40,779 nt of DNA from Conexibacter sp. GTDB lineage: Bacteria > Actinomycetota > Thermoleophilia > Solirubrobacterales > Solirubrobacteraceae. Below, piece by piece: positions 3,343-39,343 of this stretch. The stretch is taken from the NCBI GenBank assembly GCA_025964325.1, contig JAOPZA010000171.1, positions 1 through 40,779 of the forward strand, read 5' to 3'. Position numbers and translations under genes: made by a program. Each line of letters starts with the position of its first letter. The stretch's first letter is position 1. Under the pieces are notes generated by a model. The model had not been told where the DNA came from, searched no databases, and worked only from the letters and a program-made list of their open reading frames with translations.

Positions 3343-4359
3343 TCAGAAGAGCTTTCTACCTTGCTCGGGTAAATCGATCTTCAAGTGATCGAAGGCACGA
3401 CGGGTCGCGACGCGTCCGCGCGGCGTCCGCTCGATCAGCCCGCATTGCAGCAGGTAGGGCTCGTAGACATCCTCGATCGTATCCTGTTCCTCGCCCACGG
3501 CCACGGCCAGCGTCGAGAGACCGACCGGCCCGCCCCCGAACATCTCGCAGATCGCGCGCAGGATCGAGCGATCGAGATGGTCCAACCCGACGTGGTCGAC
3601 CTGCAGCAGGTCGAGCGCGTGCGCGGCCACGTCCGCGGTGACGATCCCGTCGCCCCGGACCTCGGCGTAGTCGCGCACCCGCTTCAGCAGGCGGTTGGCG
3701 ACGCGCGGCGTGCCACGGCTGCGCGCCGCGATCGCGCGCGCACCGGCCGACTCGACCTCGATCCCGAGCAGCTGCGCCGAGCGCCGCACGATCCGGCCGA
3801 GCTCGTCGGCGTCGTAGTGCTCGAGCCGGTGCTGGATCCCGAAGCGGTCGCGCAGGGGCGTCGTCAGCAGGCCCGCGCGGGTCGTCGCTCCGATCAACGT
3901 GAAGGGCGGCAGGTCGAGCGTCACGACGCGCGCCCCGGCGCCCTGGCCGACCGTGATCGGAAGCTGGCCGTCCTCCATCGCCGGGTAGAAGACCTCCTCC
4001 AGCGCGCGCGGCAGCCGGTGGATCTCGTCGACGAAGAAGATCGCGCGCGGCTCGAGCGCGGTCAGCAGCGCGGCGATGTCGGCCTTGCGCTCGAGCGCCG
4101 GCCCGGCCGTCTGCACGAACGGGGCCCCGAGCTCGGCCGCGACGATCTGCGCGAGCGAGGTCTTGCCGAGCCCGGGCGGGCCGGCCAGCAGCACGTGGTC
4201 GAGCGCGTCGCCGCGCGCGCTCGCCGCCTCGATCGAGACGGAGAGCTGCGCGCGCACCGCCTCCTGCCCGACGAAGTCCGCGAGGCGGCGCGGCCGCAGC
4301 GAGCGGTCGAGCTCGTCCTCCGCCAGGACGTCGGGGGTCTGGATCCGCGGCGCGCTCAT
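3343..4359 (-). CDS. ruvB: Holliday junction branch migration ATPase RuvB
   Basis: Hexameric AAA+ motor that drives branch migration of Holliday junctions loaded by RuvA. 338 aa, the usual length. It shows the N-terminal signature [11 protein letters not shown], Walker A GPPGLGKT (60-67), Walker B with D111-E112 (FVDEIH), sensor region GATTRAG and the C-terminal winged helix with [11 protein letters not shown]. The ATG overlaps the ruvA stop by 4 bp (ATGA), so translation is probably coupled. It is the last gene of ruvC-ruvA-ruvB. Arginine codons are almost all CGN, with a single AGA in the terminal GRKLF. Confidence 0.98.
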
Positions 4360-4958
4360 CGCCGCGAGGTGCGCAGCGCGTGGGCGATCAGGTCCTCGGC
4401 CGTCTCGCCGGGCGCTCCGTCGAGCAGCGCGTCGACCTCCTGCGCGGTGAAGCCGAGGCCGACGAGCGCGGCGCGTGCGAGCGAGCGCGGATCGTCGCCG
4501 ACGACGGTCGCTCCACCCCTCGAGACCTCGTCCGGAAGCGAGACGCCGGCCTTCTCGCGCAGCTCGACGATGATCCGCTCGGCCGTGCGCTTGCCGATCC
4601 CGGGGACCGCCTGGAAGCGGGCGACGTCGCCGCCGGCGAGCGCGCCGAGCAGCTCCCGCGGCGTGCCGCCGGAGAGCACCGCGAGCGCGACCTTCGGGCC
4701 GACCGACTGGACGCCGAGCAGCATCAGGAAGAGGTCGCGCTCCTCCTCGGTCGCGAAGCCGTAGAGCGCGAGCGCGTCGTCGCGGACGATCAGGTGGCTG
4801 TGGAGCGTGACCGGCTTGCCGACCGCCGGCACGTGGCCCATCGTCTCGCTCGAGACCGCGAGCCGGTAGCCGACCCCGCCGACGTCGACGACCACCTCTC
4901 CCCCGCTCGGACCGGCGGGACGGCGGCCCGCGACCTCGCCGCGGACGAGCGCGATCAC
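4356..4958 (-). CDS. ruvA: Holliday junction DNA-binding subunit RuvA
   Basis: Tetrameric junction-binding protein that targets RuvB rings to the crossover. 200 aa starting at GTG 4958, which overlaps the ruvC stop (GTGA). The reading frame is open far upstream, so the start was chosen from the canonical RuvA beginning ([10 protein letters not shown]) and the overlap. Domains: OB fold (1-65, with GGVGYRLAV), tandem helix-hairpin-helix region ([18 protein letters not shown] and [17 protein letters not shown]), then domain III ([19 protein letters not shown]), which contacts RuvB. Confidence 0.96.
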
Positions 4959-5449
4959 GCCGGCACCAGCGCCGCCGCGAGCGGCGCCCGGTTGGCGTGG
5001 CAGATCGCGACCGCGAGCGCGTCGGCGGCGTGGTCGGGGCGCGGTGGCTCCGGCAGCGACAGCAGCCGCTGGACCATCCCCTGGACCTGCGCCTTGTCCG
5101 CCCGGCCGCTGCCGCAGACCGCGCCCTTGACCTGCTGGGGCGTGTAGGAGCTGCACGGGATCCCGTGCTGCCCGGCGGCCAGCAGCACGACGCCGCGCGC
5201 CTGCCCGACCGCGAAGGCGGACCGGGCGTTGACCCCGAAGAAGAGGTCCTCGACCGCGACCGCGACCGGCGCGTGCTCCGCGATCAGCTCGACGACGCGG
5301 GCGTGGATCTGCGCGAGCCGGCGTTCGAGCGGCAGCGCAGCGGACGTCTCGATCACGCCGCCGTCGAGCGCGACGACGCGGCCGCGTCGCTGGGCGACGA
5401 CGCCGTAGCCCGTGTTGGCGGTGCCCGGGTCGATGCCGAGGACGATCAT
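4955..5449 (-). CDS. ruvC: Crossover junction endodeoxyribonuclease RuvC
   Basis: Dimeric resolvase that nicks Holliday junctions symmetrically. 164 aa with an RNase H-like fold. Catalytic carboxylates are visible at D7 (GIDPG), E67 (VEDLFF), and D139/D143 with H140 ([10 protein letters not shown]). The order ruvC-ruvA-ruvB with 4-bp overlaps is typical of actinobacteria and implies one translationally coupled operon. A palindrome-rich gap separates it from yebC upstream. Confidence 0.97.
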
Positions 5450-5488
5450 GTGTTCGTATTCTGCGCCGTCGCCCGGACGCCTCCGTGT

Positions 5489-5569
5489 CCAATCGGCTGG
5501 CGGTCCAATCGGCTGGCGCCGATTGGATGGCGCCGATTGGATTGGGAGATCGGCTGGCGCCGATCTCCC
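5489..5569. repeat. Cluster of hairpins with a shared GCTGGCGC centre between yebC and ruvC
   Basis: Two perfect hairpins: 5505-5526 (9-bp arms CCAATCGGC/GCCGATTGG, loop TGGC) and 5544-5569 (11-bp arms GGGAGATCGGC/GCCGATCTCCC, loop TGGC). Partial copies of the CCAATCGGCTGGCG arm occur at 5489-5503 and again around 5527-5540. The cluster lies just downstream of the yebC stop and just upstream of ruvC. It could be a terminator for yebC, a leader element for ruvCAB, or a small dispersed repeat. A hairpin of the same build occurs at 21878-21903. Confidence 0.7.
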
Positions 5570-5596
5570 GGCCGGGTTGGCGGAGACGGCGCCTTG

Positions 5597-6346
5597 CTAC
5601 CCAGCGATGCGTTCGAGCACGGCGGCGTCGACGTCGAAGTTGGCGTGCACGTCGCCGACGTCGTCGTTCTCCTCCAGCGCGTCGATCAGGCGCATCAGTC
5701 TGCCGGCCTGGTCCTCCTCGACCGGCACGCGCGTCTTCGGACGCTGCGTCAGGTCGGCGGCCTGCACCTCGATCCCCGCCTCCTCCAGCGCGGCGCGCAC
5801 CGGCCGCAGGTCCGTCGGCGCCGTCAGGATCTCGAACACGTCGTCGTCCTGCTGGATGTCCTCGGCGCCGGCGTCGATCGCGACCATCAGGTCGTCCTCG
5901 CTCCAGCGCTCGGCGTCGACCACGATCACGCCCTGCTTGTCGAACAGGTACGCGACCGAGCCCGGCTCGCCGAGGCTGCCGCCGTGCTTGGAGAGCAGGT
6001 GGCGGACGTCGGCGCTCGTGCGGTTGCGGTTGTCGGTCAGCGCCTCGATCAGCAGCGCGACGCCGCCCGGGCCGTAGCCCTCGTAGAGGATCGTCTCGAT
6101 CGCGTTCGCGTCGGCCCCGGCTCCGGTGCCTCTCGCGATCGCTCGCTCGATGTTGTCCTTCGGCATCGAGGCGTCTCTCGCCTTCTGGACGGCGTTCCCG
6201 AGCGCGGCGTTCATCTCCGGATCGCCACCGCCCTCGCGCGCCGCGACCGTGATCGCGCGCGCCAGCTTCGTGAAGGCCGCGCCGCGCCGTGAGTCGACGA
6301 TCGCCTTCTTGTGCTTGATGCTCGCCCACTTGGAATGTCCAGACAT
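5597..6346 (-). CDS. yebC: YebC/TACO1-family translation factor or transcriptional regulator
   Basis: 249 aa, normal for the family. Begins MSGHSKWASIKHKKAIVDSRRG, the family hallmark. It also has the conserved NIERAIARGTG and YEGYGPGGVALLIEALTDN segments and a C-terminal acidic region (LIDALEENDDVGDVHANFD). Members bind DNA or act on the ribosome to relieve stalls. The start is fixed by homology: the open frame continues upstream, but TACAAT (6354-6359, read on minus) lies 7 nt before this ATG, which suits a leaderless transcript. Several arginines use AGA. YebC next to ruvCAB is a common bacterial arrangement. Confidence 0.96.
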   Translation of the reverse strand: MSGHSKWASIKHKKAIVDSRRGAAFTKLARAITVAAREGGGDPEMNAALGNAVQKARDASMPKDNIERAIARGTGAGADANAIETILYEGYGPGGVALLIEALTDNRNRTSADVRHLLSKHGGSLGEPGSVAYLFDKQGVIVVDAERWSEDDLMVAIDAGAEDIQQDDDVFEILTAPTDLRPVRAALEEAGIEVQAADLTQRPKTRVPVEEDQAGRLMRLIDALEENDDVGDVHANFDVDAAVLERIAG

Positions 6347-26795: not shown

Positions 26796-26869
<74 letters not shown>

Positions 26870-27438: not shown

Positions 27439-27485
27439 GCGGTCTCATAGTCCATTGGTCCCAGGTTCGAGTCCTCGTTGGGCCA
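27439..27485 (+). pseudogene. Decayed copy of the 3' part of the CAT tRNA (putative att remnant)
   Basis: 47 nt align without gaps to tRNA bases 26823-26869, from the anticodon stem to the discriminator A, with 39 identities. Mismatches break the anticodon stem (GCGGT/TCCAT) and T-stem (CCAGG/CCTCG), and no D-arm or 5' acceptor strand precedes it, so it cannot be a working tRNA. Duplicated tRNA 3' ends are typical scars of integrative elements. Confidence 0.8.
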
Positions 27486-27512
27486 TAAGAAAAGCCCTGG
27501 TAATCAGGGCTT
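27486..27512 (-). terminator. Intrinsic terminator of the surface-protein operon
   Basis: Arms AAGCCCTG/CAGGGCTT, loop of 5 nt (27492-27512). On the minus strand it runs into TTTTCTTAT, a proper T-tract. It lies 40 bp beyond the stop at 27552. Confidence 0.85.
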
Positions 27513-27551: not shown

Positions 27552-29996
27552 TCACTGCTTCGTGACGGTCGCCGAGGCGCTCGTGTAGGACGTGCCCGTC
27601 GCGGTCTGGACGCTGAACGTATCGAAGAACCAGCTTCCGCTCTGCGCCTTGAACGTGAACAGCGCCGTCGAGTCGGCCGCGCCGGTGGAGCTGATCGTGA
27701 GGGTGACCGACGAGCCCGACGTGGGCGCGATGAAGCTGCCGCCGCTGCCCCCGCCTCTCGTCGGCGTCGAGACCGTGACCGTGTGGCCGGTCCCGAGGCC
27801 GCTCACGGCGTTCCCGTCGGCATCGGTGACGCTCACGTTCGCCGTGAACGTGCCGTTGTTGCCGAGTGCCGTGTCGGTGCAGCTGAAGAGGCAGGGCGAG
27901 CTGAGCGTTCCGGCGCTGACGCTCACGTGGGTCCAGGCCAGTTGGGCTGCGGCGCCCGGGGCGACGGTCACCGAGAGGCCGCTGCCGTTGCCGATCGTGC
28001 CGTCCGTGACCGTGATGCTGGCCGTCTCGGCCTTGTGGAGCGTCATCGCGCCGTTGTTCCCGCCCGACACGGTCGCCACGCCGCTGCTGAAGCTGATCGA
28101 CTCCGTCGTGCCGAATACGACCGCGTTCCCCGAGCTGCTCGTGACGGTTGGCTGCGTGCCGTCGGGCGAGGTGCCGGCGCCGTTGAATCTGAGGTTGTGC
28201 GTGCCCGTGTAGGCCGTCGCCGTGTTGCCGCCGGCGTCGAGCGCCGTGATCGTCAGGTTGTCGGCGGTCCCCGCCGTCGGCGTCGCCGTCGCCGCGGAGA
28301 GGACGAGCTGTGACGCGGCGCCCGCGCTCACGTTGAACGCGGTGCTGTCGATCGTCAAGGTGCCGTCGTTGGCGCGGAGTTGATAGCCGGTTCCGACCTT
28401 GTCGATCTTGCAGCCGGAGAAGGTCGTCACGCCACCGGATCGGACACCGCTGCAGCTGGTCAGCGCGGCGCCCGCGGCGCCCGTGCCGCTCTTGATCGAG
28501 AGCGTGACCGTGCCCGCATAGGTGGTGACTGTGTTGCCCGCCGCGTCCTCGGCCGTCACGACCGGCTGCGTCGCGAACGCCGCCCCGCCCGCCGCCCCAG
28601 CCGGCTGCGTCGTGAACACCAGCTGGGACGCGGCACCGACGGCCACGTTGAACGCCGTGCTGTCGATCGTCAAGGTCCCGTCGTTGGCGCGGACTTGATA
28701 GCCGGTTCCGACCTTGTCGATCTTGCAGCCGGAGAACGTCGTCACCCCACCCGACCGCACGCCGCTGCAACCCGTCAACGCCGCGCCCGCCGCGCCCGTG
28801 CCGCTCTTGATCGAGAGCGCGACCGTGCCCGCATAGGTGGTGACTGTGTTGCCCGCCGCGTCCTCGGCCGTCACGACCGGCTGCGTCGTGAACGCCGACC
28901 CGGCCGCCGCCCCAGCGGGCTGCGTCGTGAAGACCAGCTGCGACACCGCACCCGCCGTGACGTTGAACGCGGTGCTGTCGATCGCCAGGGTCCCGTCGCT
29001 CGCACGCAGCTGGTAGGCCGTGCCGGCCTTGTCGATCTTGCAGCCGGAGAACGTCGTTACCCCACCTGACCGCACGCCGCTGCAGCTGGTCAGCGCGGCG
29101 CCCGCGGCGCCCGTGCCGCTCTTGATCGAGAGCGCGACCGTGCCCGCATAGGTGGTGACTGTGTTGCCCGCCGCATCCTGGGCCGTCACGACCGGCTGCG
29201 TCGTGAACGCCGACGCACCCGCCGCGCCAGCCGGCTGCGTCGTGAACACCAACTGCGACACCGCCCCGGCGGTCACGTTGAACGCCGTGCTGTCGACCGC
29301 CAACGTCCCGTCGCTCGCACGGAGCTGGTAACCGATACCCGACTGGTCGATCTTGCAACCCGAGAACGTCGTCACCCCGCCCGACGGCACGCCGCTGCAA
29401 CCCGTCAACGCCGCGCCCGCGGCGCCCGTGCCGCTTTTGATCGAGAGCGCGACCGTGCCCGCATAGGTGGTGACTGTGTTGCCCGCCGCGTCCTCGGCCG
29501 TCACGACCGGCTGCGTCGTGAACGCCGTCGCACCCACCGCACCCGCCGGCTGTCTCGTCAGCACGAGCTGCGAGACCGGGCCGAAGCTGATCTGCGCGGT
29601 TGCGGTCGCACTCGTCGCCGTCCAGGACCGCCAGACCGCGGTGACGGTGTACTGGTGTCTCCCGACCGACACCCCGCTGTCGGTGCAGCTCGTCGCGCTC
29701 GACGGGGTCGACGAGCTCGGGCAGGCCGCGCTCGCGGCGCCGCCGTCGCGGCTCACGTAGTAGGTCACCGTCCCGGAGGCCGGCGCGGCGACGGTCGACC
29801 AGCTCAGCGCAACCGTGCCAGCGCCCGCGGTCGCGCTCGCGATGCTCGGCGCCGCGAGCGTGCCGATGGTCGCGCTCCTGCTGCCGCTTCCCGGCGCGGT
29901 CCAGTACGCGAGCGCGGGCTGTGCGGCGCCGACGAGCAGCGCGGCACCGGCGGCGACGACCGTGCAGCCGCGGACGAGGAGGCGGCGAAGTCTCAC
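27552..29996 (-). CDS. Exported repeat protein: SipW-type start, FN3-like domain, four 105-aa Ig-like repeats
   Basis: 814 aa from GTG 29996, which overlaps the stop of the upstream gene (GTGA). The N-terminal segment (VRGCTVVAAGAALLVGAAQPALA) is followed by YWTAPGSGSRSATIG, like SipW-dependent signal sequences. Then an FN3-like domain (about 32-125), and four repeats of exactly 105 residues, each with SQLVFTTQPAG, DAAGNTVTTYAGTVALSIKS and a Cys pair (CSGV ... SGCKID) likely forming a disulfide. Two or three diverged Big/Ig-like domains follow (DNLTITALDAGGNTATAYTG; VTDADGNAVSGLGTGHTVTV) up to the C-terminus. No sortase or anchor motif is seen. Probably a surface stalk or fibre; adhesion is inferred. 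Confidence 0.88.
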   Translation of the reverse strand: MRLRRLLVRGCTVVAAGAALLVGAAQPALAYWTAPGSGSRSATIGTLAAPSIASATAGAGTVALSWSTVAAPASGTVTYYVSRDGGAASAACPSSSTPSSATSCTDSGVSVGRHQYTVTAVWRSWTATSATATAQISFGPVSQLVLTRQPAGAVGATAFTTQPVVTAEDAAGNTVTTYAGTVALSIKSGTGAAGAALTGCSGVPSGGVTTFSGCKIDQSGIGYQLRASDGTLAVDSTAFNVTAGAVSQLVFTTQPAGAAGASAFTTQPVVTAQDAAGNTVTTYAGTVALSIKSGTGAAGAALTSCSGVRSGGVTTFSGCKIDKAGTAYQLRASDGTLAIDSTAFNVTAGAVSQLVFTTQPAGAAAGSAFTTQPVVTAEDAAGNTVTTYAGTVALSIKSGTGAAGAALTGCSGVRSGGVTTFSGCKIDKVGTGYQVRANDGTLTIDSTAFNVAVGAASQLVFTTQPAGAAGGAAFATQPVVTAEDAAGNTVTTYAGTVTLSIKSGTGAAGAALTSCSGVRSGGVTTFSGCKIDKVGTGYQLRANDGTLTIDSTAFNVSAGAASQLVLSAATATPTAGTADNLTITALDAGGNTATAYTGTHNLRFNGAGTSPDGTQPTVTSSSGNAVVFGTTESISFSSGVATVSGGNNGAMTLHKAETASITVTDGTIGNGSGLSVTVAPGAAAQLAWTHVSVSAGTLSSPCLFSCTDTALGNNGTFTANVSVTDADGNAVSGLGTGHTVTVSTPTRGGGSGGSFIAPTSGSSVTLTISSTGAADSTALFTFKAQSGSWFFDTFSVQTATGTSYTSASATVTKQ
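28314..29573 (-). repeat. Four 315-bp in-frame tandem repeats
   Basis: The period is exactly 315 bp: the word CGTTGAACGC recurs at 28331, 28646, 28961 and 29276. Four units encode the 105-aa repeats; a fifth diverged start lies just below 28314. Units differ by scattered, partly synonymous changes. Confidence 0.95.
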
Positions 29997-31627
29997 GAGT
30001 GCGCGCTCCCGCCGTAGCTGAACGAGAACCCCGCACCCTTGCAGGCGTCCTGGTTCGTCGGGAGGTCCTTCATCAGAGCCTGCGGCGCGCTGACCGTGCC
30101 GGAGGGAAGCGTCACGTGCCCGCCCGCGGGCACGACGAGCGGGTTGGAAGCGGACGCGTTGGACTCGGTGACCTGGAGGTTCGTCGGCCCGTCGCAGCCG
30201 GGCTTCGTGCTCCCGGGCTGGACGGTGACGGTCAGGCTCGTGACGGAGATCGCGACGCTGTTCGGGTTCGTGACCGTCAGCGCGAGCGGCTGCGAGACGC
30301 CCGGGAAGAGCGCTCCGAGCGCGCCGCCCGCGACGGTGAACCCCGCGCCGCCCTGCTGCTGCTTCACCTTCCACTCGAACTCTGCGGCCTCGCTGCGGTT
30401 CCCGGCCGCGTCGATCGCGCGAACGTCGAACTCGTGCTTGCCGACGCCGAGTCCGCTGTAGCCGACCGGGCTGGTGCAGCTCGCCGTCCATGCGCCACCG
30501 TCGAGCCTGCACTGGAAGCCGACCCCGGACTCTCTGTCGGTGAAGGCGAAGGTCGCGGCGCTCGAGCTCGACGGGTCGCTCGGGTTCTGCGTGATCCGCG
30601 GCCTCGGCGGCGCGATGGTGTCGACGGTCCACGACGACGATGCCGCGGCGCTGAGGTTGCCGGCCGCGTCCCGCGCCTCGACGGAGAAGTGATGTGGGCC
30701 CTGGGAGAGCCCGTCGAGGCGCTCCGGGCTGGAGCACGGCGAGAACGCCTCGCCGTCGAGCCTGCACAGGAAGCTCACGCCGGGTTCGGCGTCGGTGAAC
30801 GCGAACGTCGCGCGCCTCGACGTGGACACGCTCGGCGGCGTGTCGACGAGCTGCGGCACGGGCGGCGCGTGCGTGTCGATCGTGAACGACGAGCTCGCCT
30901 GCGAGCCGGGTGCGGTCGCGTTGCCGAGGCCGTCGGTGGCGCGCGCATGGATCGAGTACGCCCCATCGCTTGCGGGCAGAGCCAGCGGGTAGCGCCAGCT
31001 CGTGGTGCCGGTGGCGGCGTTGAAGACCTCGCTCGCCGAGGAGAAGCTCGAGCCGTTCCAGTACTTCCCGGTCGCCTGCTGCCGCACGGACAGCTTAACC
31101 GAGGCCACGCCGCTCGGGTCGGCGGCGCTCCCGCAGATGCCGGGACCGCTCGGACAGCCGCTGCTCCAGCGCGCGGCGCCGTACGACGAGCTGCCGCCGG
31201 CAGGGAACGAGAGGCCGATCGCGGGCGCCATCGTGTCGACCGCCCAGGTCCGGGAAGCCGGCGAGCTGAACCGTCCGGCGCTGGTCCGCGCCCGCACGCG
31301 GAAGGTGTGCGACCCCGGCGCGAGCGGGCCGGCGTACGCCTTGGGGCTCGAGCACGCCGTGAAGTCGGATCCGTCCAGCGAGCACTGGAACGTCAGCGAC
31401 GCCGGACTGCCGGCGAACGCGAAGCCGGCGGAGGTCTGGCTGGTCGGGCCCGCGGGGCCCGAGGTGATCGTCGGAGACGGGACGGAGGCCTCGTTCGATG
31501 CCGCGAAGGCGATGCCGCCCGCAAGCGCCGTGACCGCGAGCGCGACGAGCGTGGCCAGGCCTCGGCCGTGGCGCCGCCGCCGGCCGACGCGGGCGCTCTT
31601 CGCGTTGTTGGTGAAGGGCAGGTTCAT
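29993..31627 (-). CDS. Exported Ig-like repeat protein with C-terminal NQDxCxG module
   Basis: 544 aa from ATG 31627. Signal segment about 24-43 (LATLVALAVTALAGGIAFAAS). Three copies of a Cys-paired Ig-like domain with the pattern FxCxLDG...CxSP...GxHxFxVxAxDxAGN...W.VDT.AP (about 48-128, 235-320, 322-405), plus a different domain (130-235) with a CPSGPGICG pair. The last about 100 residues (PLALTVTNPNSVAISVTSLTVTV ... GTVSAPQALMKDL, then PTNQDACKGAGFSFSY) resemble the mature 158-aa protein encoded just upstream. Its stop overlaps the GTG of the next gene by 4 bp. Likely a wall- or fibre-associated protein. Confidence 0.88.
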   Translation of the reverse strand: MNLPFTNNAKSARVGRRRRHGRGLATLVALAVTALAGGIAFAASNEASVPSPTITSGPAGPTSQTSAGFAFAGSPASLTFQCSLDGSDFTACSSPKAYAGPLAPGSHTFRVRARTSAGRFSSPASRTWAVDTMAPAIGLSFPAGGSSSYGAARWSSGCPSGPGICGSAADPSGVASVKLSVRQQATGKYWNGSSFSSASEVFNAATGTTSWRYPLALPASDGAYSIHARATDGLGNATAPGSQASSSFTIDTHAPPVPQLVDTPPSVSTSRRATFAFTDAEPGVSFLCRLDGEAFSPCSSPERLDGLSQGPHHFSVEARDAAGNLSAAASSSWTVDTIAPPRPRITQNPSDPSSSSAATFAFTDRESGVGFQCRLDGGAWTASCTSPVGYSGLGVGKHEFDVRAIDAAGNRSEAAEFEWKVKQQQGGAGFTVAGGALGALFPGVSQPLALTVTNPNSVAISVTSLTVTVQPGSTKPGCDGPTNLQVTESNASASNPLVVPAGGHVTLPSGTVSAPQALMKDLPTNQDACKGAGFSFSYGGSAHS

Positions 31628-31702
31628 CGTGGCGGGTCGCTTGCTGCTCGGGGAACGCCGGCGGAGGGACGCGTCTCAGCGCCCCTCCCACCGCCGATCC
31701 GG

Positions 31703-32179
31703 CTACAGGCCCGTGTTGTCGACCTTCAGGTTGAGGATCGGGCTCGTCCCCTGGCAGGGATCCTGGTTCGCGCTCGTGTTGTCCATCGAGAGCGTGCCCG
31801 TGCTCGCCGCGGTGCCTCTGGCGGCGATCTCCGTGCCGACGACGACGTCGCCGAAGTGGAAGTCGGCGGCGGAGCATCCCGCGGGGAGGCCGGAGATGCC
31901 GTTGACGCCGGCGCTGAGGTCTGCGACGACCTTCCCGACTCTCACGGCCGTGTCCGACGACGTGTTGTTGATCGTGAAGTGCACCGTCGACTGGCCGCCC
32001 GGGTACAGGGGGCCGTCGATCGTCACGGGGCTGATCGTCACGCCGCTGTCTCTGCCGACCGTCGCGGTACCCGAGCCTGTGCCCGAGGACGTGAAGTACG
32101 CCACCGCGACACCGGCGAACGCGAGCGCCACCACTGCGGCGACCGGAATGAGAATCCGCTTGCGCATGAGCTTCCGCAT
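31703..32179 (-). CDS. SipW-type signal-containing small exported protein
   Basis: 158 aa from ATG 32179, chosen over ATG 32167 because AAAGGA lies upstream. The signal segment RILIPVAAVVALAFAGVAVAYF runs into TSSGTGSGTATVG, the motif of SipW-dependent (TasA-like) exported proteins. The mature part is a single beta-rich domain (GGQSTVHFTINNTSSDTAV), a GCSAADFHF stretch and a C-terminal NQDPCQGTSPILNLKV. First gene of the operon with the 544-aa and 814-aa proteins. No SipW peptidase gene occurs in the window. It could be the main subunit of a fibre, but this is inference. Confidence 0.87.
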   Translation of the reverse strand: MRKLMRKRILIPVAAVVALAFAGVAVAYFTSSGTGSGTATVGRDSGVTISPVTIDGPLYPGGQSTVHFTINNTSSDTAVRVGKVVADLSAGVNGISGLPAGCSAADFHFGDVVVGTEIAARGTAASTGTLSMDNTSANQDPCQGTSPILNLKVDNTGL

Positions 32180-32213
32180 GAGCGCGATGTTCCTTTCGTC
32201 CGTGTGCATTGCC

Positions 32214-32230
32214 TGGAGCCATCGGCTCCA
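32214..32230 (-). promoter_or_regulatory. Hairpin in the leader of the surface operon
   Basis: TGGAGCC/GGCTCCA with a 3-nt loop, 35 nt upstream of the ATG at 32179. Confidence 0.35.
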
Positions 32231-32355
32231 TGCCGCGGTGGATCGCTTCGGCTTCGGAGTCTGCGTGGACGCGATCGTGGGCTGGGGCGGTTCCTTCCGC
32301 GGACACGGAGGTTGGTGGCGGACCAGCCGTCGTTCAATGGTCCGCGCGCACCCTT

Positions 32356-32379
32356 CCGCGTTCATTCGCATGAACGCGG
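32356..32379. promoter_or_regulatory. Perfect 10-4-10 palindrome in the divergent regulator/surface gap
   Basis: Arms CCGCGTTCAT and ATGAACGCGG around TCGC, in the 274-bp gap between the surface operon (minus) and the LuxR-type response regulator (plus). It is a good candidate operator for that dimeric regulator or another factor controlling both directions. Confidence 0.5.
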
Positions 32380-32453
32380 GGAGGCGAGACGGCGGTTGCG
32401 TTCGAGCCGACTGCGGGCGAGAGTACGCCCCGACGCACCGACCCGTGGAGAAC

Positions 32454-33137
32454 GTGACCGACACCCAGGCAACACCGCCGCCCCCCGCCCGCGATCGCCC
32501 GGTTCGGGTGCTGATCGTCGACGACCACGACGTGTTCCGGCACGGCCTCGCCCAGCTCGTCGCCGAAGCGGGCATCGAGATCGTGGCCGAGGCGAGCAGC
32601 GGAGCGATGGGCATTCGCCTTGCGCGCGAGCTCGAGCCCGACGTCGTGCTGATGGACCTCAGCATGCCGGTGATGTCGGGGATCGAGGCGACGCGCGCGA
32701 TCGTCGCGCTCGGCTCCCCGACACGCGTCGTGATCCTCACGATCTCGGAGGACGACCACTCGATGATGGAGGCGCTGCTCGCCGGGGCGGTCGGCTACGT
32801 GCTCAAGGACGCCGAGCTCGAGCGCATCGTCGCCGCGGTCCGCAGCGCCGCCGCCGGGGAGGCGATCGTCCCACGCCCCGTCGCCGCCGAGGTCCTGCGC
32901 CGGCTGCGAGCAGCGGAGCCGGATGCGCCCGCGCTCCTCACGCTCGAGCTGTCAGAGCGCGAGTTCGACGTCCTGCGGCTCATCGTCGAGGGGCGGGACA
33001 ACGCCACGATCGCGGCCGAGCTGTTCATCAGCCCGAACACGGTCAAGAACCACGTCGTCAAGATCTTCGCCAAGCTCGGCGTCGACAGCCGGCTCCAGGC
33101 GTCGGTGCACGCGCTGCGGCGCGGCCTCGTCTCCTGA
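32454..33137 (+). CDS. NarL/FixJ-type response regulator without adjacent kinase
   Basis: 227 aa from GTG 32454 (a GTG 9 bp earlier is an alternative). Receiver domain: VRVLIVDDHDVFRHGL with the acidic pair, phospho-Asp in VVLMDLSMPVMSG, and Lys in GYVLKDAE. LuxR helix-turn-helix at the C-terminus: LSEREFDVLRLIVEGRDNATIAAELFISPNTVKNHVVKIFAKLGV. It stands divergent to the surface operon and convergent (4 bp) with the next response regulator, so no kinase gene is in its own unit; the kinases at 33819 or 35505 could serve it. Likely regulator of the surface operon (inference). Confidence 0.93.
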   Translation: MTDTQATPPPPARDRPVRVLIVDDHDVFRHGLAQLVAEAGIEIVAEASSGAMGIRLARELEPDVVLMDLSMPVMSGIEATRAIVALGSPTRVVILTISEDDHSMMEALLAGAVGYVLKDAELERIVAAVRSAAAGEAIVPRPVAAEVLRRLRAAEPDAPALLTLELSEREFDVLRLIVEGRDNATIAAELFISPNTVKNHVVKIFAKLGVDSRLQASVHALRRGLVS

Positions 33138-33141
33138 GCCG

Positions 33142-33822
33142 CTAGAACCGCGCAGCACGGCCGCGGACGCGGTCCAGCAGCGCGAACGCCGTCCGCCGGT
33201 CGGGCACGCGCAGCTTGTGCAGCACCGAGGAGACATGCCGCCGCACGGTCACCTGGCTGATGCCCAGACGCGCCGCGACTTCGGCGGTCGAGGCGCTCTC
33301 GCGCAACAGCTCGAGGATCTCCCACTCGCGGTCGGTCAGCTCGGCGCCTCCGCTGCCCAAGAGCGGCACGCGCCGGCGCCGGCGCTCGCTGAGCTCCTCG
33401 ACGATGCGGCTGACGAGCCGCCGGGGAATCGCCGCCTCGCCCGTCAACACCCCCTCGAGCGCCGCCGACAGCCGGGCCGGGTCGACGTCCTTCAGCAGGT
33501 ACCCGGCCGCGCCGGCCTTGATCGCGGCGAACAGATCATCCTCGTCGGCCGAGACGGTCAGCATCACGATCGCGGTGCCGGGCAGGCGGGCGGCGATCTG
33601 GGCTGCCGCCTCGATGCCGTCCCCTCCGGGCATGTGGACGTCGAGCAGGCAGACGTCCGGGCGCTCGCGGATCGCCGCCTCGACCGCCGACGGCCCGTCG
33701 GCCGCCTCGGCGCAGATCTCGAAGCCCGTTCCCTCCAGCGCCATGCGGACGCCGGCGCGAGCGGCGACGTGGTCGTCGGCGACGAGCACGCGTCGTGAAG
33801 CGGTGGTCGCCGGCTCACTCAC
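33142..33822 (-). CDS. NarL/FixJ-type response regulator, partner of the upstream kinase
   Basis: 226 aa from GTG 33822, which overlaps the kinase stop (GTGA); the longer frame is inside the kinase gene. Receiver: RRVLVADDHVAARAGVRMAL, phospho-Asp in VCLLDVHMPGGDG, Lys in GYLLKDVD. LuxR HTH: LTDREWEILELLRESASTAEVAARLGISQVTVRRHVSSVLHKL. Phosphorylated by the co-transcribed kinase; target genes are not visible. Confidence 0.94.
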   Translation of the reverse strand: MSEPATTASRRVLVADDHVAARAGVRMALEGTGFEICAEAADGPSAVEAAIRERPDVCLLDVHMPGGDGIEAAAQIAARLPGTAIVMLTVSADEDDLFAAIKAGAAGYLLKDVDPARLSAALEGVLTGEAAIPRRLVSRIVEELSERRRRRVPLLGSGGAELTDREWEILELLRESASTAEVAARLGISQVTVRRHVSSVLHKLRVPDRRTAFALLDRVRGRAARF

Positions 33823-35270
33823 GGCAGCGCCACCTCGACCTCCGTGCCGAGGCCGGGAGCCGAACGGACCGCGAGGCATCCGCCGAAGGCCTCCGCGCGT
33901 TCGCGCATGGCGAGCAGCCCGTAGGAGTCGCGGGAGGGACTCCTCGCGTCGGGGTCGAAGCCGCAGCCGTCGTCGCGCACCGTCACGCTGCGCGGCTCGC
34001 CGTCGCGCAGCTCGATCGCCGCCGTGCGCGCGCCGCCGTGCCGGGCCGCGTTGGAGAGGGCCTCGCCGACGATCCTCATCAGCGCCTCACGCACCGGCGG
34101 CGCGACCTGCAACGTCGGCTCGCCGCTCACCCGCACGTCCAGATCCAGCCGCCGGCCGAGCTCGTCGGCCGCCCGCTCGAGCGCCTCGTGGAGCGGCTCG
34201 TCGAGCGGCACCCGCAGCGTCGAGATCGCCGCGCGGGACTCGTCGAGCGCGCGCTCGGCGGCGCTCAGCATCCGCTCGGTGACCGGTCCCGGCTGCAGCG
34301 TGTGCAGGCGGCGCGCCTGTCCGAGCAGGTACATCAGCTCCTGGGCCACGCCGTCGTGCAGCTCGCGCGCCACGCGCCCCCGCTCCTCGATCGTCACGAG
34401 TCGCGCCCGATCGCGCTGATACGCCCGGATCTCCCCCACCGCGCCGGCGGCCAGCAGGATGTAGGCGCCGAGCGCGAGCACATCGCCGGCGTAGAACCAG
34501 TCGACGTACAGCGAGGGCACGAGCAGGTAGTTCAGCCAGGCGAACGCGAGCAGGGTCGTGCCCCATGTCAGGAACAGGGAGAACGAGTCCAGCCGTCGGC
34601 GCCGGCGAGCGATGAACCCGGCGGCCGCCACGACGACCAACGCCGCGGAGATGCCCTTCAGCACGATCGATCCCGCGGTCCCCGAGAGCACACGGTAGGC
34701 GACCGCGCCGGTGGGCTGGCCGCCGCCGGCGTCCTGCGGCAGGTCCGGACCGAGTGTCGCGAGGACGAGCGCGAGCACGCCGAGCGCGCAGACCGTTCCC
34801 GCGACGAGCGTGCGCGCGGCATGGGGCCGCGGGCGCCGGCTGCGTGCGGGGACCAGCGCGGCCGCGGCCAGCAGCGCGGCGGCGACGAGCCGTCCCGACA
34901 CCGGAAGCCAGGTCGCCAGTCCGCCCGGACTGCGCCCCGTCGCGGCCGGGATCGCGTTGAACAGCAGGTTCGAGACGCCGAGCACGGCGAAGGACACGGC
35001 CAGCAGCAGGTCGCTGGCCGCGGGCAGGCGCCGGAAGCGCCCTGCCGCCAGCATCGAGACGAGCAGCGCGACGAGCGCCGACGCAGTGGCGATCTGGGCG
35101 TGCAGCGTCGCGCGGTGGTAGGCGAACCGCAGGCTCGGCACCGTCACGACGAGCGTCGTGACCGCCGCGCCGACCAGGCCCGCGACCAGCAGGCCGGTCC
35201 AGCGCAGCGACATCTGACTCGACCGGCGGTCGATGATCCTCCGTGTGCTCGTTGGCGCTTCCGTGGCCAT
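33819..35270 (-). CDS. Membrane sensor histidine kinase (HisKA_3 type)
   Basis: 483 aa from ATG 35270, chosen over ATG 35285 because GGAG lies 8 nt before it. About seven or eight hydrophobic segments fill the first 270 residues with no large external sensor domain, so the signal is probably sensed in or at the membrane. Dimerisation/phospho-acceptor: IEERGRVARELHDGVAQELMYLL (His in RELHD). ATPase: EALSNAARHGGARTA, VRDDGCGFDP, YGLLAMRERAEAFGG. It is divergent from the second kinase at 35505 across a gap of about 230 bp. Confidence 0.94.
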   Translation of the reverse strand: MATEAPTSTRRIIDRRSSQMSLRWTGLLVAGLVGAAVTTLVVTVPSLRFAYHRATLHAQIATASALVALLVSMLAAGRFRRLPAASDLLLAVSFAVLGVSNLLFNAIPAATGRSPGGLATWLPVSGRLVAAALLAAAALVPARSRRPRPHAARTLVAGTVCALGVLALVLATLGPDLPQDAGGGQPTGAVAYRVLSGTAGSIVLKGISAALVVVAAAGFIARRRRRLDSFSLFLTWGTTLLAFAWLNYLLVPSLYVDWFYAGDVLALGAYILLAAGAVGEIRAYQRDRARLVTIEERGRVARELHDGVAQELMYLLGQARRLHTLQPGPVTERMLSAAERALDESRAAISTLRVPLDEPLHEALERAADELGRRLDLDVRVSGEPTLQVAPPVREALMRIVGEALSNAARHGGARTAAIELRDGEPRSVTVRDDGCGFDPDARSPSRDSYGLLAMRERAEAFGGCLAVRSAPGLGTEVEVALP

Positions 35271-35504
35271 CGGCGGAGCTCCCATTTTTCACGGCTGTCG
35301 TCGTCTTACCAAAGACGTGTGCACCGAATCTACGGAGAACGGGACCGTGCAACAAGCTTCGGTCGGTTCCGCAAGGTCGCTGTCACTACGCCGCGAGCGG
35401 TACGCCGGCGTCTCGGCGCCCCTCCGCGTACTCCCACAGCAGCAGCCGGGCGGCGTCCGCTCGGCCGATGACGCGCCGCAACGGGCGGAGTAGCGTCCCG
35501 CACG

Positions 35505-36638
35505 ATGCCGAAGCCTCGCCTGCGATCCTGGAACGTCGTGCTCGCCGTCGCGGCAGCGGCTGCGCTGATCGTCGAACGGCACCTGCGGGCGGAGGGCGGC
35601 ATCGGATGGGTCGGCGCGCTGGTTCTCGCGATCGCGGCGGCGACGCCGCTCGCGTGGCGCACGCGCGCACCGCTGGCGGCGCTCGTCGGGGTCGAGGCCG
35701 GCGCGCTGCTCTGCGTGGTCGCGTTTCACGCGAGCTGGGCGGCGACGGCGATGGTGCTCGTCGAGCTCTATACCGTCGCGCTCCTCGGCGACCGGCTGCG
35801 ATCGCTGCTCGTCGGGGCGATCACGGCAATCGGGGTGATCGTCGCGATCGTGCTCGTCGACGGCACGCTGGACCCGGGGGGCATCGCGATGCGGGTCCCG
35901 CTGGTGTTCGCGGCGCTCGCCCTCGGAGACACGGTCCGCTCGCGGCGGGCGCTGCGCGCGGCGGCGCGCGAGCAGGCGCTGCGCGAGGCACGTGAGCGCG
36001 AGGAGGAGGGCCGACGCCGCGTCGCCGGCGAGCGTCTGCGGATCGCTCGAGAGCTCCACGACACGCTCGCGCATTCGCTTGTCGCGATCAACGTCAGGTC
36101 GGGCGTGGCGGTCGACCTCCACGACTCGCAGGACCCGTTGCCCGCGCTCCAGGACATCAAGCACGTCTCAGCCGTCGCGCTGCGCGACCTGCGCGCGACG
36201 CTGAGCCTCCTGCGCGAGCAGGACGACGCAGCTCCGACCACGCCGGCGTTCGAGCTCGACGCGCTGCCGCGACTCGTCGATCACGCGCGGTCGAGCGGGC
36301 TGCGCGCGGAGATCGATGTCGAGGTCGACGGCGCCGCCGTCCCGTCCGCGATCGGCGGCGCCGCCTTCCGGATCGTGCAGGAAGCGCTGACCAACGTCGT
36401 GCGCCACGCCGATGCGTCGAGCGCGCACGTGCGCGTCCGAGCGAGCCCCGACACGCTCGACATCGAGATCACCGACGACGGTCGAGGCGCCGGCAGCGGC
36501 GTTCACGCGGGATTCGGCCTTCGCGGCATGGCCGAACGCGCCGCCGCGCTCGGAGGCCGCCTCAACGTCGGCCCGCGCGAGGAAGGCGGCTGGCGGGTCC
36601 ACGCGATGCTTCCGCTCAGCGGCGGGGATCGCCCGTGA
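35505..36638 (+). CDS. Membrane sensor histidine kinase (HisKA_3 type), second system
   Basis: 377 aa. Four or five membrane segments in the first 140 residues, a charged coiled segment (RALRAAAREQALREAREREEEGRRR), then phospho-acceptor RIARELHDTLAHSLVAINVRSGVAVDL and ATPase motifs EALTNVVRHADASSAHV, ITDDGRGAG and GFGLRGMAERAAALGG. TAGCGT (35491-35496) ends 8 nt before the ATG. The stop overlaps the GTG of its response regulator. The signal is unknown; such kinases commonly sense envelope stress. Confidence 0.94.
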   Translation: MPKPRLRSWNVVLAVAAAAALIVERHLRAEGGIGWVGALVLAIAAATPLAWRTRAPLAALVGVEAGALLCVVAFHASWAATAMVLVELYTVALLGDRLRSLLVGAITAIGVIVAIVLVDGTLDPGGIAMRVPLVFAALALGDTVRSRRALRAAAREQALREAREREEEGRRRVAGERLRIARELHDTLAHSLVAINVRSGVAVDLHDSQDPLPALQDIKHVSAVALRDLRATLSLLREQDDAAPTTPAFELDALPRLVDHARSSGLRAEIDVEVDGAAVPSAIGGAAFRIVQEALTNVVRHADASSAHVRVRASPDTLDIEITDDGRGAGSGVHAGFGLRGMAERAAALGGRLNVGPREEGGWRVHAMLPLSGGDRP

Positions 36639-37300
36639 CGCCCACACGGGTCGTTCTCGCCGAGGACCAGCCGATGGTCCGAGCCGGCTTCCGCGCGCTG
36701 CTGGACTCCCGCAGCGACATCGAGGTCGTCGGCGAGGCCGCAACGGGAGCGGAGGCACTCGAGCAGGTTCGCGCGCTGCGGCCGGACGTCGTCGTCATGG
36801 ACATCCGGATGCCCGAGATGGACGGGCTCGAGGCGACCCGCCAGATCATCGGCGACCGCGCGCTCGGCCACACCCGCGTCCTGGTCCTGACGACGTTCGA
36901 TCTCGACGAGTACGTCTTCGGCGCGCTCCGCGCCGGCGCCAGCGGCTTCCTGCTCAAAGGCGGCGAACCCGCCGACCTCGTCCAGGCGATCCGCATCGTC
37001 GCCGACGGCGAGTCGCTGCTCGCCCCGAGCGTCACGCGGCGACTGATCCAGACCTACATCTCGCAACCGCAGCCGCCTGCGCGAAGCGAGCCCGACGCGA
37101 TGGCAGAGCTGACGGCGCGGGAGCGCGAGGTCCTCAGCCTCGTCGCCACCGGCCTGAACAACGCCGAGATCGCTCACGCGCTTCAGCTGAGCCCGCTCAC
37201 AGCCAAGACGCACGTCTCGAGGATCCTCATGAAGCTCGGCGCGCGCGACCGCGTCCAGCTCGTCGTGATCGCCTACCAGAGCGGGATCGTCGAGCCGTAG
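36635..37300 (+). CDS. NarL/FixJ-type response regulator, second system
   Basis: 221 aa from GTG 36635 (GTGA overlap with the kinase stop). Receiver: TRVVLAEDQPMVRAGFRALL, phospho-Asp in VVVMDIRMPEMDG, Lys in GFLLKGGE. LuxR HTH: LTAREREVLSLVATGLNNAEIAHALQLSPLTAKTHVSRILMKLGARDRVQLV. Complete two-component pair with the preceding kinase; followed by a strong palindrome before the convergent PQQ gene. Confidence 0.95.
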   Translation: MTPTRVVLAEDQPMVRAGFRALLDSRSDIEVVGEAATGAEALEQVRALRPDVVVMDIRMPEMDGLEATRQIIGDRALGHTRVLVLTTFDLDEYVFGALRAGASGFLLKGGEPADLVQAIRIVADGESLLAPSVTRRLIQTYISQPQPPARSEPDAMAELTAREREVLSLVATGLNNAEIAHALQLSPLTAKTHVSRILMKLGARDRVQLVVIAYQSGIVEP

Positions 37301-37369: not shown

Positions 37370-39343
37370 CTACGGAGCGGCCGCCCCGGCGCCGCCGCCA
37401 CCGCCGCCACCGCCGCTCTTGCCCTCGACCGAGGCGACGTATCTGGCGATCGAGTCGATCTGCGCTCTGGAGAGCGTTCCGCCGAACGCCGGCATCCCGG
37501 GGCCGCCGTCGGTGACCTGTCTCACGACACGCGCTTCGTTCGGTCTGAGCTGGTCGAGGTTCGGCCCGGTCGTGCCGGTCGTACCCGCGTCGGCGAGCGT
37601 GTGGCAGGTGGCGCAGTTGGTTCTGAACAGCGCTCTGCCCGCCGCTGCGGATGCGCCGCCGCCCTGCTGGGGTGGCTGGGTGCTCGTGGTCGGCGTCGGG
37701 GCCGCGCCCGTGGCGCCGAGGCGGTAGGCGACGATCACCGGTCTCTCTGCTCTACCCGACGGGAAGCTGCCCGCTGTGATCACGGTGTCGTCGTCGATCG
37801 CCACCGGCGCGTTCGTCCCGGCCGGGAGTCTTCTCGACCACGCGACGGCGCCCGTCTGCTTGTTCAGCGCATAGGCCGTGCCGTCGAACGTCGTCGTGAA
37901 GACGAGGTCGTTGGTGACCGCCGCCGCGCCATAGGCGGAGCTGGGCAATCTCTGGTCCCATCTCACCGTGCCGCTCGCGATGTCGAGCGCGACCATCTCA
38001 CCGGTGCCCGTCGCCGGGTTCGCGCTGGTCTCGACCTGCTTTCTGACGATGCCGGCGAGGTTGTTGATCGGCAGGTAGAGCGTCGCGCCGTCCGACGCCA
38101 TCGGCGACTCGACGCCGCCGAACTCACCGGGGAGCACGTTGTACGTCGCGCTCGGACTCGGCAGCTTGCTGTACTGCCTACTCTGGGCGTAGATGTGGTC
38201 GTTGTCGTGGCCGTTGTGTCTGCCGACTGAGGTTCTCCACAGCAGTCTGCCGGTGTTCGCGTCGTTCGCGATCGCGATCCCGCCCTTGCCGGCGGACAGC
38301 GTGACCGGCGTGCCATTGGCCTGGGCGAGGATCGGCGAGTTGTTGAGGTCCCAGTCGTAGACGTCGTGCGGGATCAGCTGGTAGTGCCACAGCAGTCTGC
38401 CGCTGGCGGCGTCGAGCTTGACGACGGCGTTTGTGTAGAGGTTCGGCCCGGGGCGCGAGCCGCCGAACGACGCCGACTGGCTCGTCGACGGTCTCGTGAA
38501 GTTGCTGCCGACGAACGGCGCCGGATTCGAGACGTTCAGATAGACGTTGCCGGCGGCGTCGAACGACGGCGGCTCCCACTGCCCGCCACCCGAGTTGACC
38601 TTCGGGTTGCCCCAGAGCGACGCCGGAACCTCGTCCCACTTCCATCTGGTGGCACCGGTGTTCATGTCCATCGCCCACAGGATCGCCTGGCCGTTGCCGG
38701 CGTAGAAGCCTCTCGGATTGCCCGGCACCGTCGAGACGTAGACGACCCCGTTGTTGACGCCCGGCGCCATGTCGATGCCCTCGTTGCCGTTGCGGACCAG
38801 TCTTCTGCTCCACAGCTGCTCACCGGTTCTCGCGCTCAGCGCGAACGCGTTGGTCTGCGTCGCGCCGAAGACTCTGCCGTCCGCGACCGCGACACCATTG
38901 GGGCCCGTGTCGGGCGAGTTGTAGCTTCTCGTCCACATCACTCTGCCGGTTCTGCGGTCGATCGCCTGCACGTCGGACGTCAGGTTCTGGGTGTACATCA
39001 CGCCGCCCACCACGACCGGGGTCGTGGCGTAGTTGCCGAACGCGCCCGCGCCTCTGATCGGGACCGTCCAGGCGACCCCGAGCTGCGACACGTTGCTCGA
39101 TCTGATCTGGCTGGTCACGCTCCGCGTGTTGCCGAGATCGCCGTTGGGCATCGTCCAACCGGCGGCGGCCGTCGTGGCCGGGATCGTGGCCGGCGTCCCC
39201 CCGGGCGTCGTCCCCGCGGCGGTGCTCGACGTCGTTGAACTCTTCTTGCCCCCGCCGCCGCATCCGGCCACGACGAGCGCCGCCAGCACGACCAGGGGAA
39301 CGATCAAACGTGCGCCTGCCCGTACACCGCCTGTCCAACCCAT
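37370..39343 (-). CDS. PQQ-type beta-propeller lipoprotein with C-terminal cytochrome c domain
   Basis: 657 aa from ATG 39343 (AGAGG 8 nt upstream); the ATG at 39430 is rejected. Lipobox LVVAGC near residue 26, then a Thr/Ser linker. Propeller blades show AxDxxTGxxxW motifs (QAIDRRTGRVMWTRSY, ALSARTGEQLWSRRL, KLDAASGRLLWHYQ, ALNKQTGAVAWSRRL), as in PQQ-dependent alcohol/sugar dehydrogenases. A heme c site CATCH (577-581) and a distal Met in GPGMPAF (617) follow, then a Gly-rich end. Likely an outer-membrane-side quinohemoprotein oxidising an alcohol or sugar; whether PQQ is bound is unproven, and PQQ synthesis genes are not in the window. Arginine is AGA in 29 of 38 codons, extreme for this genome. 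Confidence 0.9.
   Translation of the reverse strand: MGWTGGVRAGARLIVPLVVLAALVVAGCGGGGKKSSTTSSTAAGTTPGGTPATIPATTAAAGWTMPNGDLGNTRSVTSQIRSSNVSQLGVAWTVPIRGAGAFGNYATTPVVVGGVMYTQNLTSDVQAIDRRTGRVMWTRSYNSPDTGPNGVAVADGRVFGATQTNAFALSARTGEQLWSRRLVRNGNEGIDMAPGVNNGVVYVSTVPGNPRGFYAGNGQAILWAMDMNTGATRWKWDEVPASLWGNPKVNSGGGQWEPPSFDAAGNVYLNVSNPAPFVGSNFTRPSTSQSASFGGSRPGPNLYTNAVVKLDAASGRLLWHYQLIPHDVYDWDLNNSPILAQANGTPVTLSAGKGGIAIANDANTGRLLWRTSVGRHNGHDNDHIYAQSRQYSKLPSPSATYNVLPGEFGGVESPMASDGATLYLPINNLAGIVRKQVETSANPATGTGEMVALDIASGTVRWDQRLPSSAYGAAAVTNDLVFTTTFDGTAYALNKQTGAVAWSRRLPAGTNAPVAIDDDTVITAGSFPSGRAERPVIVAYRLGATGAAPTPTTSTQPPQQGGGASAAAGRALFRTNCATCHTLADAGTTGTTGPNLDQLRPNEARVVRQVTDGGPGMPAFGGTLSRAQIDSIARYVASVEGKSGGGGGGGGAGAAAP

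What the first reader, a model, noticed from the sequence alone, without database searches (positions are those of the whole stretch)
27552..32379. Three-protein surface operon built around a shared NQDxCxG module, with divergent LuxR regulator
The small SipW-type protein (31703-32179) and the C-terminal 100 residues of the 544-aa protein (29993-31627) look homologous: both have a proline/glycine start, a beta-strand pair of the type LTVTNPNSVAISV / HFTINNTSSDTAV, a GC turn, a TGTLSM / SGTVSA strand, and a closing NQDPCQG / NQDACKG. The third gene (814 aa) is coupled by a GTGA overlap and carries a SipW-type AYWTAPGSG start. This suggests a co-assembled extracellular structure: small subunit, tip or anchor protein bearing the same module, and repeat stalk. 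The divergent response regulator and a perfect palindrome (32356-32379) offer a switch. No SipW peptidase or sortase lies in the window. I know of no described system with this layout.
Basis: partly seen in the sequence, partly recalled or inferred. Interest (0 to 1): 0.72.

Follow-up and report, generated by a model that had tools for sequence, protein, structure and literature searches.

The report
Actinobacterial secreted matrix-fibre operon candidate
Three neighbouring genes encode secreted proteins that share building blocks in a pattern expected of a self-assembling surface fibre, and their dedicated genetic switch is the same one that relatives place in front of a biofilm-sugar gene cluster, so this looks like an unstudied actinobacterial counterpart of the Bacillus biofilm-fibre operon.

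Summary
P1 (158 aa) and the C-terminal ~115 residues of P2 (544 aa) are homologous. A P1-family profile finds the P2 module in this genome (E 2.8e-13), and no other copy. Both modules are predicted as similar Ig-like sandwiches with two conserved cysteines. The operon is real: 22 of 32 P1 loci across Actinomycetota have a P2-type gene beside P1, and most have an adjacent P3-type gene; some lineages lack P2. Occurrence is sparse.

The anatomy is modular. P1 has a SipW-type N-segment plus the module, P2 only the module behind Ig repeats, P3 only the N-segment before FN3/Ig repeats. No sorting signals are visible, and this genome has no SipW-type peptidase.

The palindrome, with a fixed-spacing promoter facing P1, occurs once in the genome. 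In congeners lacking P1, the same element and orthologous kinase-regulator triad accompany a PelF/GH114/Agd3-like exopolysaccharide cluster. This suggests matrix function.

Best explanation: a sortase-independent, TasA-like matrix fibre with P1 as subunit and P2/P3 as end or adhesin proteins. Polymerisation is inferred. TasA-family membership is not established. New variant of a known kind.

The parts
31703..32179 (-). P1, 158-aa secreted protein: hydrophobic signal, SipW-type N-segment (AYFTSSGTGSGTA), then the two-Cys module; proposed fibre subunit
   Evidence: best match 61% identity in congener G006
32051..32098 (-). P1 SipW-type N-segment (mature residues ~1-16), low confidence in the model, shared in pattern with P3; proposed donor strand
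   Evidence: role inferred
31706..32041 (-). P1 two-Cys NQDxCxG module, predicted Ig-like beta sandwich (block pLDDT 79-92 except the C-terminal end)
29993..31627 (-). P2, 544-aa secreted protein: ordinary signal peptide, Big_13/OmpL47-like Ig repeats, C-terminal module
29996..30346 (-). P2 C-terminal two-Cys NQDxCxG module, homologous to P1; predicted Ig-like sandwich, mean pLDDT 88.9
27552..29996 (-). P3, 814-aa secreted repeat protein: SipW-type N-segment, FN3-like domain, Ig-like repeats; no module, no sorting signal seen
   Evidence: FN3/Ig-like assignment for this protein is by pattern, no Pfam match over cut-off
28306..29578 (-). four 315-bp direct repeats (88% matches) coding the ~105-aa repeats of P3
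32356..32379 (.). operator: 10-bp inverted repeat, core GCGTTCAN6TGAACGC, once in the whole genome
32308..32337 (-). proposed promoter facing P1: -35 TTGAAC (32332-32337), 17 nt, -10 near 32308-32314, at fixed 20-nt spacing from the operator
   Evidence: comparative prediction
32445..33137 (+). divergent LuxR/NarL-type response regulator (GTG start assumed); likely operator-binding protein
   Evidence: binding inferred
33142..33879 (-). second LuxR/NarL-type response regulator of the conserved triad
33819..35285 (-). histidine kinase (MASE3-like membrane part, HisKA_3, HATPase_c) of the triad

Best explanation
A biofilm-matrix or surface-fibre operon that works like tapA-sipW-tasA of Bacillus, without sortase or usher. 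Each protein leaves by Sec with its own signal peptide, probably cut by the general LepB peptidases. P1 has two halves: a flexible Gly/Ser-rich SipW-type N-segment and a two-cysteine Ig-like module. I propose that the N-segment of one P1 completes the module of the next, giving a strand-donor polymer. P2 has the module but no N-segment, so it could only accept, and would end or anchor the fibre. P3 has the N-segment but no module, so it could only donate, and would cap the other end while displaying variable FN3/Ig domains. Transcription starts from one dedicated promoter, controlled by the triad's LuxR-type regulator at the palindrome. Shown: homology, operon conservation, domain logic, conservation of operator and promoter, association of the same regulators and operator with exopolysaccharide genes. 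Inferred: polymerisation, strand donation, end-cap roles, regulator binding and its sign, biofilm function.
For: Homology and operon. Split architecture: P1 = N-segment + module, P2 = module only (none of the 12 P2 proteins read shows the N-segment), P3 = N-segment only. The P1 model has a low-confidence N-segment and a confident sandwich. P3 distal domains vary (Ig, FN3, one beta-propeller) while the module is constant, as expected of display versus assembly parts. Operator once per genome in G000 and G006, at P1 (0.009 expected from base composition). The same element, with 20-nt spacing to a -35, lies near orthologous kinase-regulator-regulator genes in G002-G004, where it precedes an Agd3-like deacetylase in a cluster with a PelF-like (DUF3492) transferase and two GH114 proteins. 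In another genus it precedes an ECF-sigma-like gene. PelF and the deacetylase PelADA are needed for Pel-dependent biofilm in B. cereus (PMC13254593), and TapA starts TasA filaments by strand donation (PMC10151520).
Against: No experiment or filament structure. Fold matches are generic Ig-like domains, none with Z of 8 or more, and no TasA chain in the lists shown. The window P1 matches no Pfam or NCBIfam family. The N-segment shared by P1 and P3 is also the generic SipW-type signature, so its resemblance need not mean strand donation. Nine P1 loci show no P2, one of them at a contig end. The regulator triad adjoins the operon only in G000 and G006; other P1 loci have other neighbours. Regulator-operator pairing rests on genomic association.
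Confidence: 0.5

Rival explanations
1. Non-polymeric surface-adhesin cluster: P1, P2 and P3 are separately secreted wall-associated or released proteins, and the shared module is a binding domain (for glycan, wall polymer or each other) rather than an assembly unit.
For: The module is a generic Ig-like sandwich. P3 is variable like fibrillar adhesins. Short P2 proteins of genus g28 are signal + module + Lys/Arg-rich tail, which could hold them on an anionic wall.
Against: The complementary split of N-segment and module over P1, P2 and P3, and loci with P1-P2-P1b (L028, L120, L154, L159), are easier to explain by assembly.
Confidence: 0.3
2. The operon is a true member of the TasA/CalY/BsaA (camelysin) family, i.e. 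a diverged TasA fibre by descent, not merely an analogue.
For: 6 of 20 P1 homologues match PF12389 at E<=1 (best 6e-6) and one matches TIGR04090 BsaA at 0.0011. Two P1 homologues of G054 pass the PF12389 cut-off when neighbouring pieces in the frame are summed.
Against: With the signal peptide removed, one of seven proteins still matches PF12389, at E 0.073. SipW-type peptidase over the cut-off in only 3 of the 18 genomes searched, not in this one. No TasA chain reached E 10 with the P1 profile.
Confidence: 0.12
3. The module binds the exopolysaccharide, so the operon encodes matrix proteins that crosslink a polysaccharide rather than a fibre.
For: The same operator and triad accompany Pel/Agd3-like polysaccharide genes in congeners. 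This genome has PelF-like genes on another contig.
Against: G006 keeps the operon and operator but has no PelF-like gene. No carbohydrate-binding family is matched by P1 or P2.
Confidence: 0.08

Closest known systems
tapA-sipW-tasA of Bacillus subtilis (TasA fibres, TapA initiator; PMC10151520, PMC9674648)
   Same: Secreted small subunit with SipW-type N-terminus and flexible N-segment, an accessory partner gene in the operon, no sortase; [quoted passage not shown]
   Different: No SipW peptidase in operon or genome; two conserved Cys and NQDxCxG end; predicted plain Ig-like sandwich; partner P2 carries the subunit's own module and P3 the N-segment; two-component LuxR-type control in two genomes.
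sipW-tasA / calY / capP of Bacillus cereus (PMC13082335)
   Same: Tripartite, sortase-independent extracellular filament system with an accessory protein.
   Different: Different gene content; the Bacillus proteins are processed by SipW; no CapP relative was sought here.
BsaA SipW-dependent matrix proteins (TIGR04090; Clostridium perfringens, PMC7395162)
   Same: SipW-type signal, biofilm matrix proteins; one P1 homologue touches the model at 0.0011.
   Different: Window protein gives no match.
Gram-positive Pel clusters with PelADA, an Agd3-like deacetylase (PMC7112168, PMC13254593)
   Same: Resembles the cluster governed by the same operator in G002-G004: PelF-like transferase, Agd3-type deacetylase.
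   Different: Not part of the window operon; those clusters add two GH114 proteins, and PelD/PelE were not sought.

Membership tests
TasA/CalY camelysin family (PF12389) | Match to the family profile over its cut-off | tested here: not met
   Window P1: no Pfam family at E<=1. Six of 20 homologues match; mature sequences: one of seven, E 0.073.
TasA/CalY camelysin family (PF12389) | SipW-type signal and N-terminus | tested here: met
   Pattern A[YF][FW][TS]..G.G after a hydrophobic stretch in P1 and P3; cleavage not tested.
TasA/CalY camelysin family (PF12389) | Cognate SipW-type peptidase in operon or genome | tested here: not met
   TIGR02228 over cut-off in 3 of 18 genomes, not in G000; the three sub-threshold G000 hits read as LepB.
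TasA/CalY camelysin family (PF12389) | TasA fold | tested here: inconclusive
   Generic Ig-like matches, Z up to 7.4; TasA not listed.
TasA/CalY camelysin family (PF12389) | Polymerises into filaments by strand donation | not testable with these tools
   Needs purified protein and electron microscopy.
Sortase-assembled pili | LPXTG-type sorting signal and a sortase in the locus | tested here: not met
   No such C-terminus in P1-P3; the only sortase hit of G000 is on contig C54, and none was found in G121, G147 and G099, which have the operon.
NarL/FixJ (LuxR-type) response regulators | Response_reg plus GerE | tested here: met
   Both regulators of the triad, over cut-off.
Pel-type polysaccharide cluster (G002-G004) | PelF-like transferase with Agd3/PelA-type deacetylase | tested here: met
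   PF11997, PF25115, PF25116 and PF03537 (twice) over cut-off in G004.
Pel-type polysaccharide cluster (G002-G004) | PelD c-di-GMP receptor and PelE | not tested
   Not searched for.

The most novel reading that the evidence does not exclude
A previously undescribed, phylum-wide class of sortase- and SipW-independent actinobacterial fibre whose polymer logic is written in the gene set: a subunit with donor and acceptor parts, one acceptor-only partner and one donor-only adhesin, stapled by a conserved disulfide; and a two-component regulator-operator unit that in different species is wired either to this protein fibre or to a Pel-like exopolysaccharide.
Probability: 0.3. Interest if true: 0.78.

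Novelty: new variant of a known kind. Interest (0 to 1): 0.6.

Why it matters
My paper searches turned up no described protein matrix fibre in these uncultured Actinomycetota (open-access library only). If right, this gives a genetic handle, a recognisable operon and operator, on how they build a matrix, and a clean test of whether subunit and end-cap roles can be predicted from a split of donor and acceptor parts. The swap of protein-fibre and polysaccharide genes behind one regulator-operator pair is a testable case of matrix rewiring, comparable to shared SinR control in Bacillus.

Tried and rejected
Pairwise BLASTP P1/P2 was too weak to decide. P1 and the P1 profile against PDB sequences gave only chance matches, the P2 profile none. 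TasA/TapA were not seen in the structural lists, which does not exclude them. Camelysin membership: the match fades once the signal peptide is removed. A search for camelysin proteins in the PF12389 loci by a simple motif gave nothing usable for a profile comparison. L040 (G056), first returned as a P1 homologue (1.4e-4), lacks the motif and was dropped. Some palindrome hits in the family survey lack the promoter element (e.g. G085), so the bare 14-base pattern alone is not proof of an operator. The idea of a SipW peptidase elsewhere in the genome was tested and not supported. A viral-collection scan with the P1 profile found no relative; with the P2 profile one contig, L120. The structure jobs could use only window, L022 and L120 sequences, so the alignments were shallow (7 and 6 rows).

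Full report
1. What is in the window. Three same-strand genes lie at the stated places: P1 31703-32179 (158 aa), P2 29993-31627 (544 aa) and P3 27552-29996 (814 aa, start overlapping the P2 stop by GTGA). P1 has no Pfam or NCBIfam match. P2 has Big_13 and OmpL47-type Ig repeats. P3 has no family match over a cut-off and contains four 315-bp direct repeats. Upstream, divergent, is a LuxR/NarL-type response regulator (32445-33137, start assumed), then a second such regulator and a histidine kinase.

2. The shared module is real. BLASTP between P1 and P2 gives only E 0.11. Relatives settle it: 18 of 151 genomes had a P1 match in the first search (one, G056, was later dropped). Aligning 20 P1 proteins and 12 P2 C-termini and comparing profiles gives probability 99.1, E 1.2e-18. 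A P1-profile search of the whole own genome finds P1 and, as the only other hit, the P2 module at E 2.8e-13. The invariant columns include PG, N and two Cys in P1 and PG and two Cys in P2. A disulfide between the two Cys is my inference.

3. Structure. The P2 module reaches 88.9 (pTM 0.79) with a similar strand order. PDB comparison gives only generic Ig-like domains (Z up to 7.4, no Foldseek match at E 0.001). The two models align to the same residue ranges of several of these chains. That is indirect superposition, not a direct one.

4. Operon conservation. In the same-genus genome G006 (L022/L023) the order kinase, regulator, divergent LuxR, P1, P2, P3 is kept. Across the order and phylum I read 32 loci with a strong P1, some of them two to a genome. 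A second gene bearing the module follows P1 in 22 of them by my count (L038 is weak). Nine have none, one of these (L151) at a contig end with a second P1-like gene; in L027 P2 is cut by the contig end. A P3-type gene with the SipW-type N-terminus follows in most. Some loci have P1-P2-P1b (L028, L120, L154, L159). In the sample of 396 genomes of the phylum about a dozen have strong P1 hits, so the distribution is sparse.

5. Modular logic. P1 = SipW-type N-segment + module. P2 = ordinary signal + Ig repeats + module (short P2 of g28: signal + module + basic tail). P3 = N-segment + FN3/Ig domains, no module. P3 distal domains vary, including a beta-propeller in L030. This is what a polymer with a donor-and-acceptor subunit and two one-sided partners would look like. 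In Bacillus, TapA donates its N-terminus to TasA but has a complete Ig fold and therefore can only sit at the filament start (PMC10151520). The analogy is a lead; no polymerisation was tested. The SipW-type N-segment is also a generic signature, so the P1/P3 resemblance is weak evidence by itself.

6. Peptidase and sortase. The genome (96.65% complete) has no SipW-type peptidase over the TIGR02228 cut-off, only three sub-threshold hits that read as LepB. It has one sortase hit, on another contig; three of six operon-bearing genomes examined have none. The three proteins show no sorting signal.

7. The switch. The palindrome core GCGTTCAN6TGAACGC occurs once in the 4.34-Mb genome and once in G006, both at P1, and reversed controls give none. 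By base composition 0.009 would be expected. With the downstream CATTG element, no other site with up to two mismatches exists in either genome. In congeners G002-G004, which had no P1 match, the same element sits in a divergent promoter of a cluster with a PelF-like transferase, two GH114 proteins and an Agd3-like deacetylase. It lies near orthologues of both regulators (46-48% identity; each is the best match among the regulators compared) and of the kinase. Eleven sites share palindrome, 20 nt, a TTG-type -35 and a -10-like A..cT after 17 nt; three more (L108, L110, L117) have 21 nt. In genus g25 (L108-L110, L114, L117, L118) the element precedes an ECF-sigma-like gene, again close to the regulator pair. 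Of 146 family genomes, 24 have the bare pattern against one with the reversed control, but several of those sites lie elsewhere. I infer that the LuxR-type regulator binds it; the direction of control is unknown.

8. Relation to known systems. It works like TasA-type matrix operons in anatomy. It is not filed as a member: the family profile does not match the window protein, the match of homologues fades without the signal peptide, and no SipW peptidase is present. G000 has PelF-like genes on another contig without the operator; G006 has none.

9. Mobility hint. A degenerate 48-bp copy (83%) of the 3' half of tRNA-Met (26796-26869) lies at 27439-27486, just beyond the P3 stop, like a relic of a tRNA-targeting element. 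The IMG/VR contig L120 carries the operon beside a gene that reads like a tyrosine recombinase (my reading). Together with the sparse distribution this suggests that the operon moves or is often lost.

10. Limits. The genomes are mostly unnamed and many are incomplete; gene calls outside the window come from a simple home-made scorer. Functional statements rest on comparison only.

Noticed in passing
26796-26869 and 27439-27486: Intact tRNA-Met(CAT) and, 616 bp further, an 83% copy of its 3' 48 bp next to the P3 stop: looks like an attachment-site relic of a tRNA-targeting element.
   Followed up: partly
L120 (IMGVR_UViG_3300036795_000436), 3683-5905: A contig of the viral collection carries a P1-P2-P1b-P3 operon near a gene that reads like a tyrosine recombinase; possibly a mobile element or a misassigned bacterial contig.
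   Followed up: partly
L090, L091, L092 (G004, G003, G002): PelF-like + two GH114 + Agd3-like deacetylase exopolysaccharide cluster under the same operator and regulator triad.
   Followed up: yes
L108, L109, L110, L114, L117, L118: The same operator-promoter element precedes an ECF-sigma-like gene in another genus; a possible regulon of envelope or glycan genes.
   Followed up: partly
L035 9271-9344, L036 8485-8557, L037 11329-11401: In genus g28 the operon lies near a tRNA-Phe gene, in L035 about 165 bp from the P1 start.
   Followed up: no
35505-37300: A further histidine kinase/LuxR-type regulator pair beside the triad, target genes unknown.
   Followed up: no
37373-39289: PQQ-type beta-propeller protein with a C-terminal cytochrome c domain.
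   Followed up: no
L092 7159-8079: Secreted 306-aa protein of unknown family with its own copy of the operator, adjoining the LuxR orthologue in G002.
   Followed up: no
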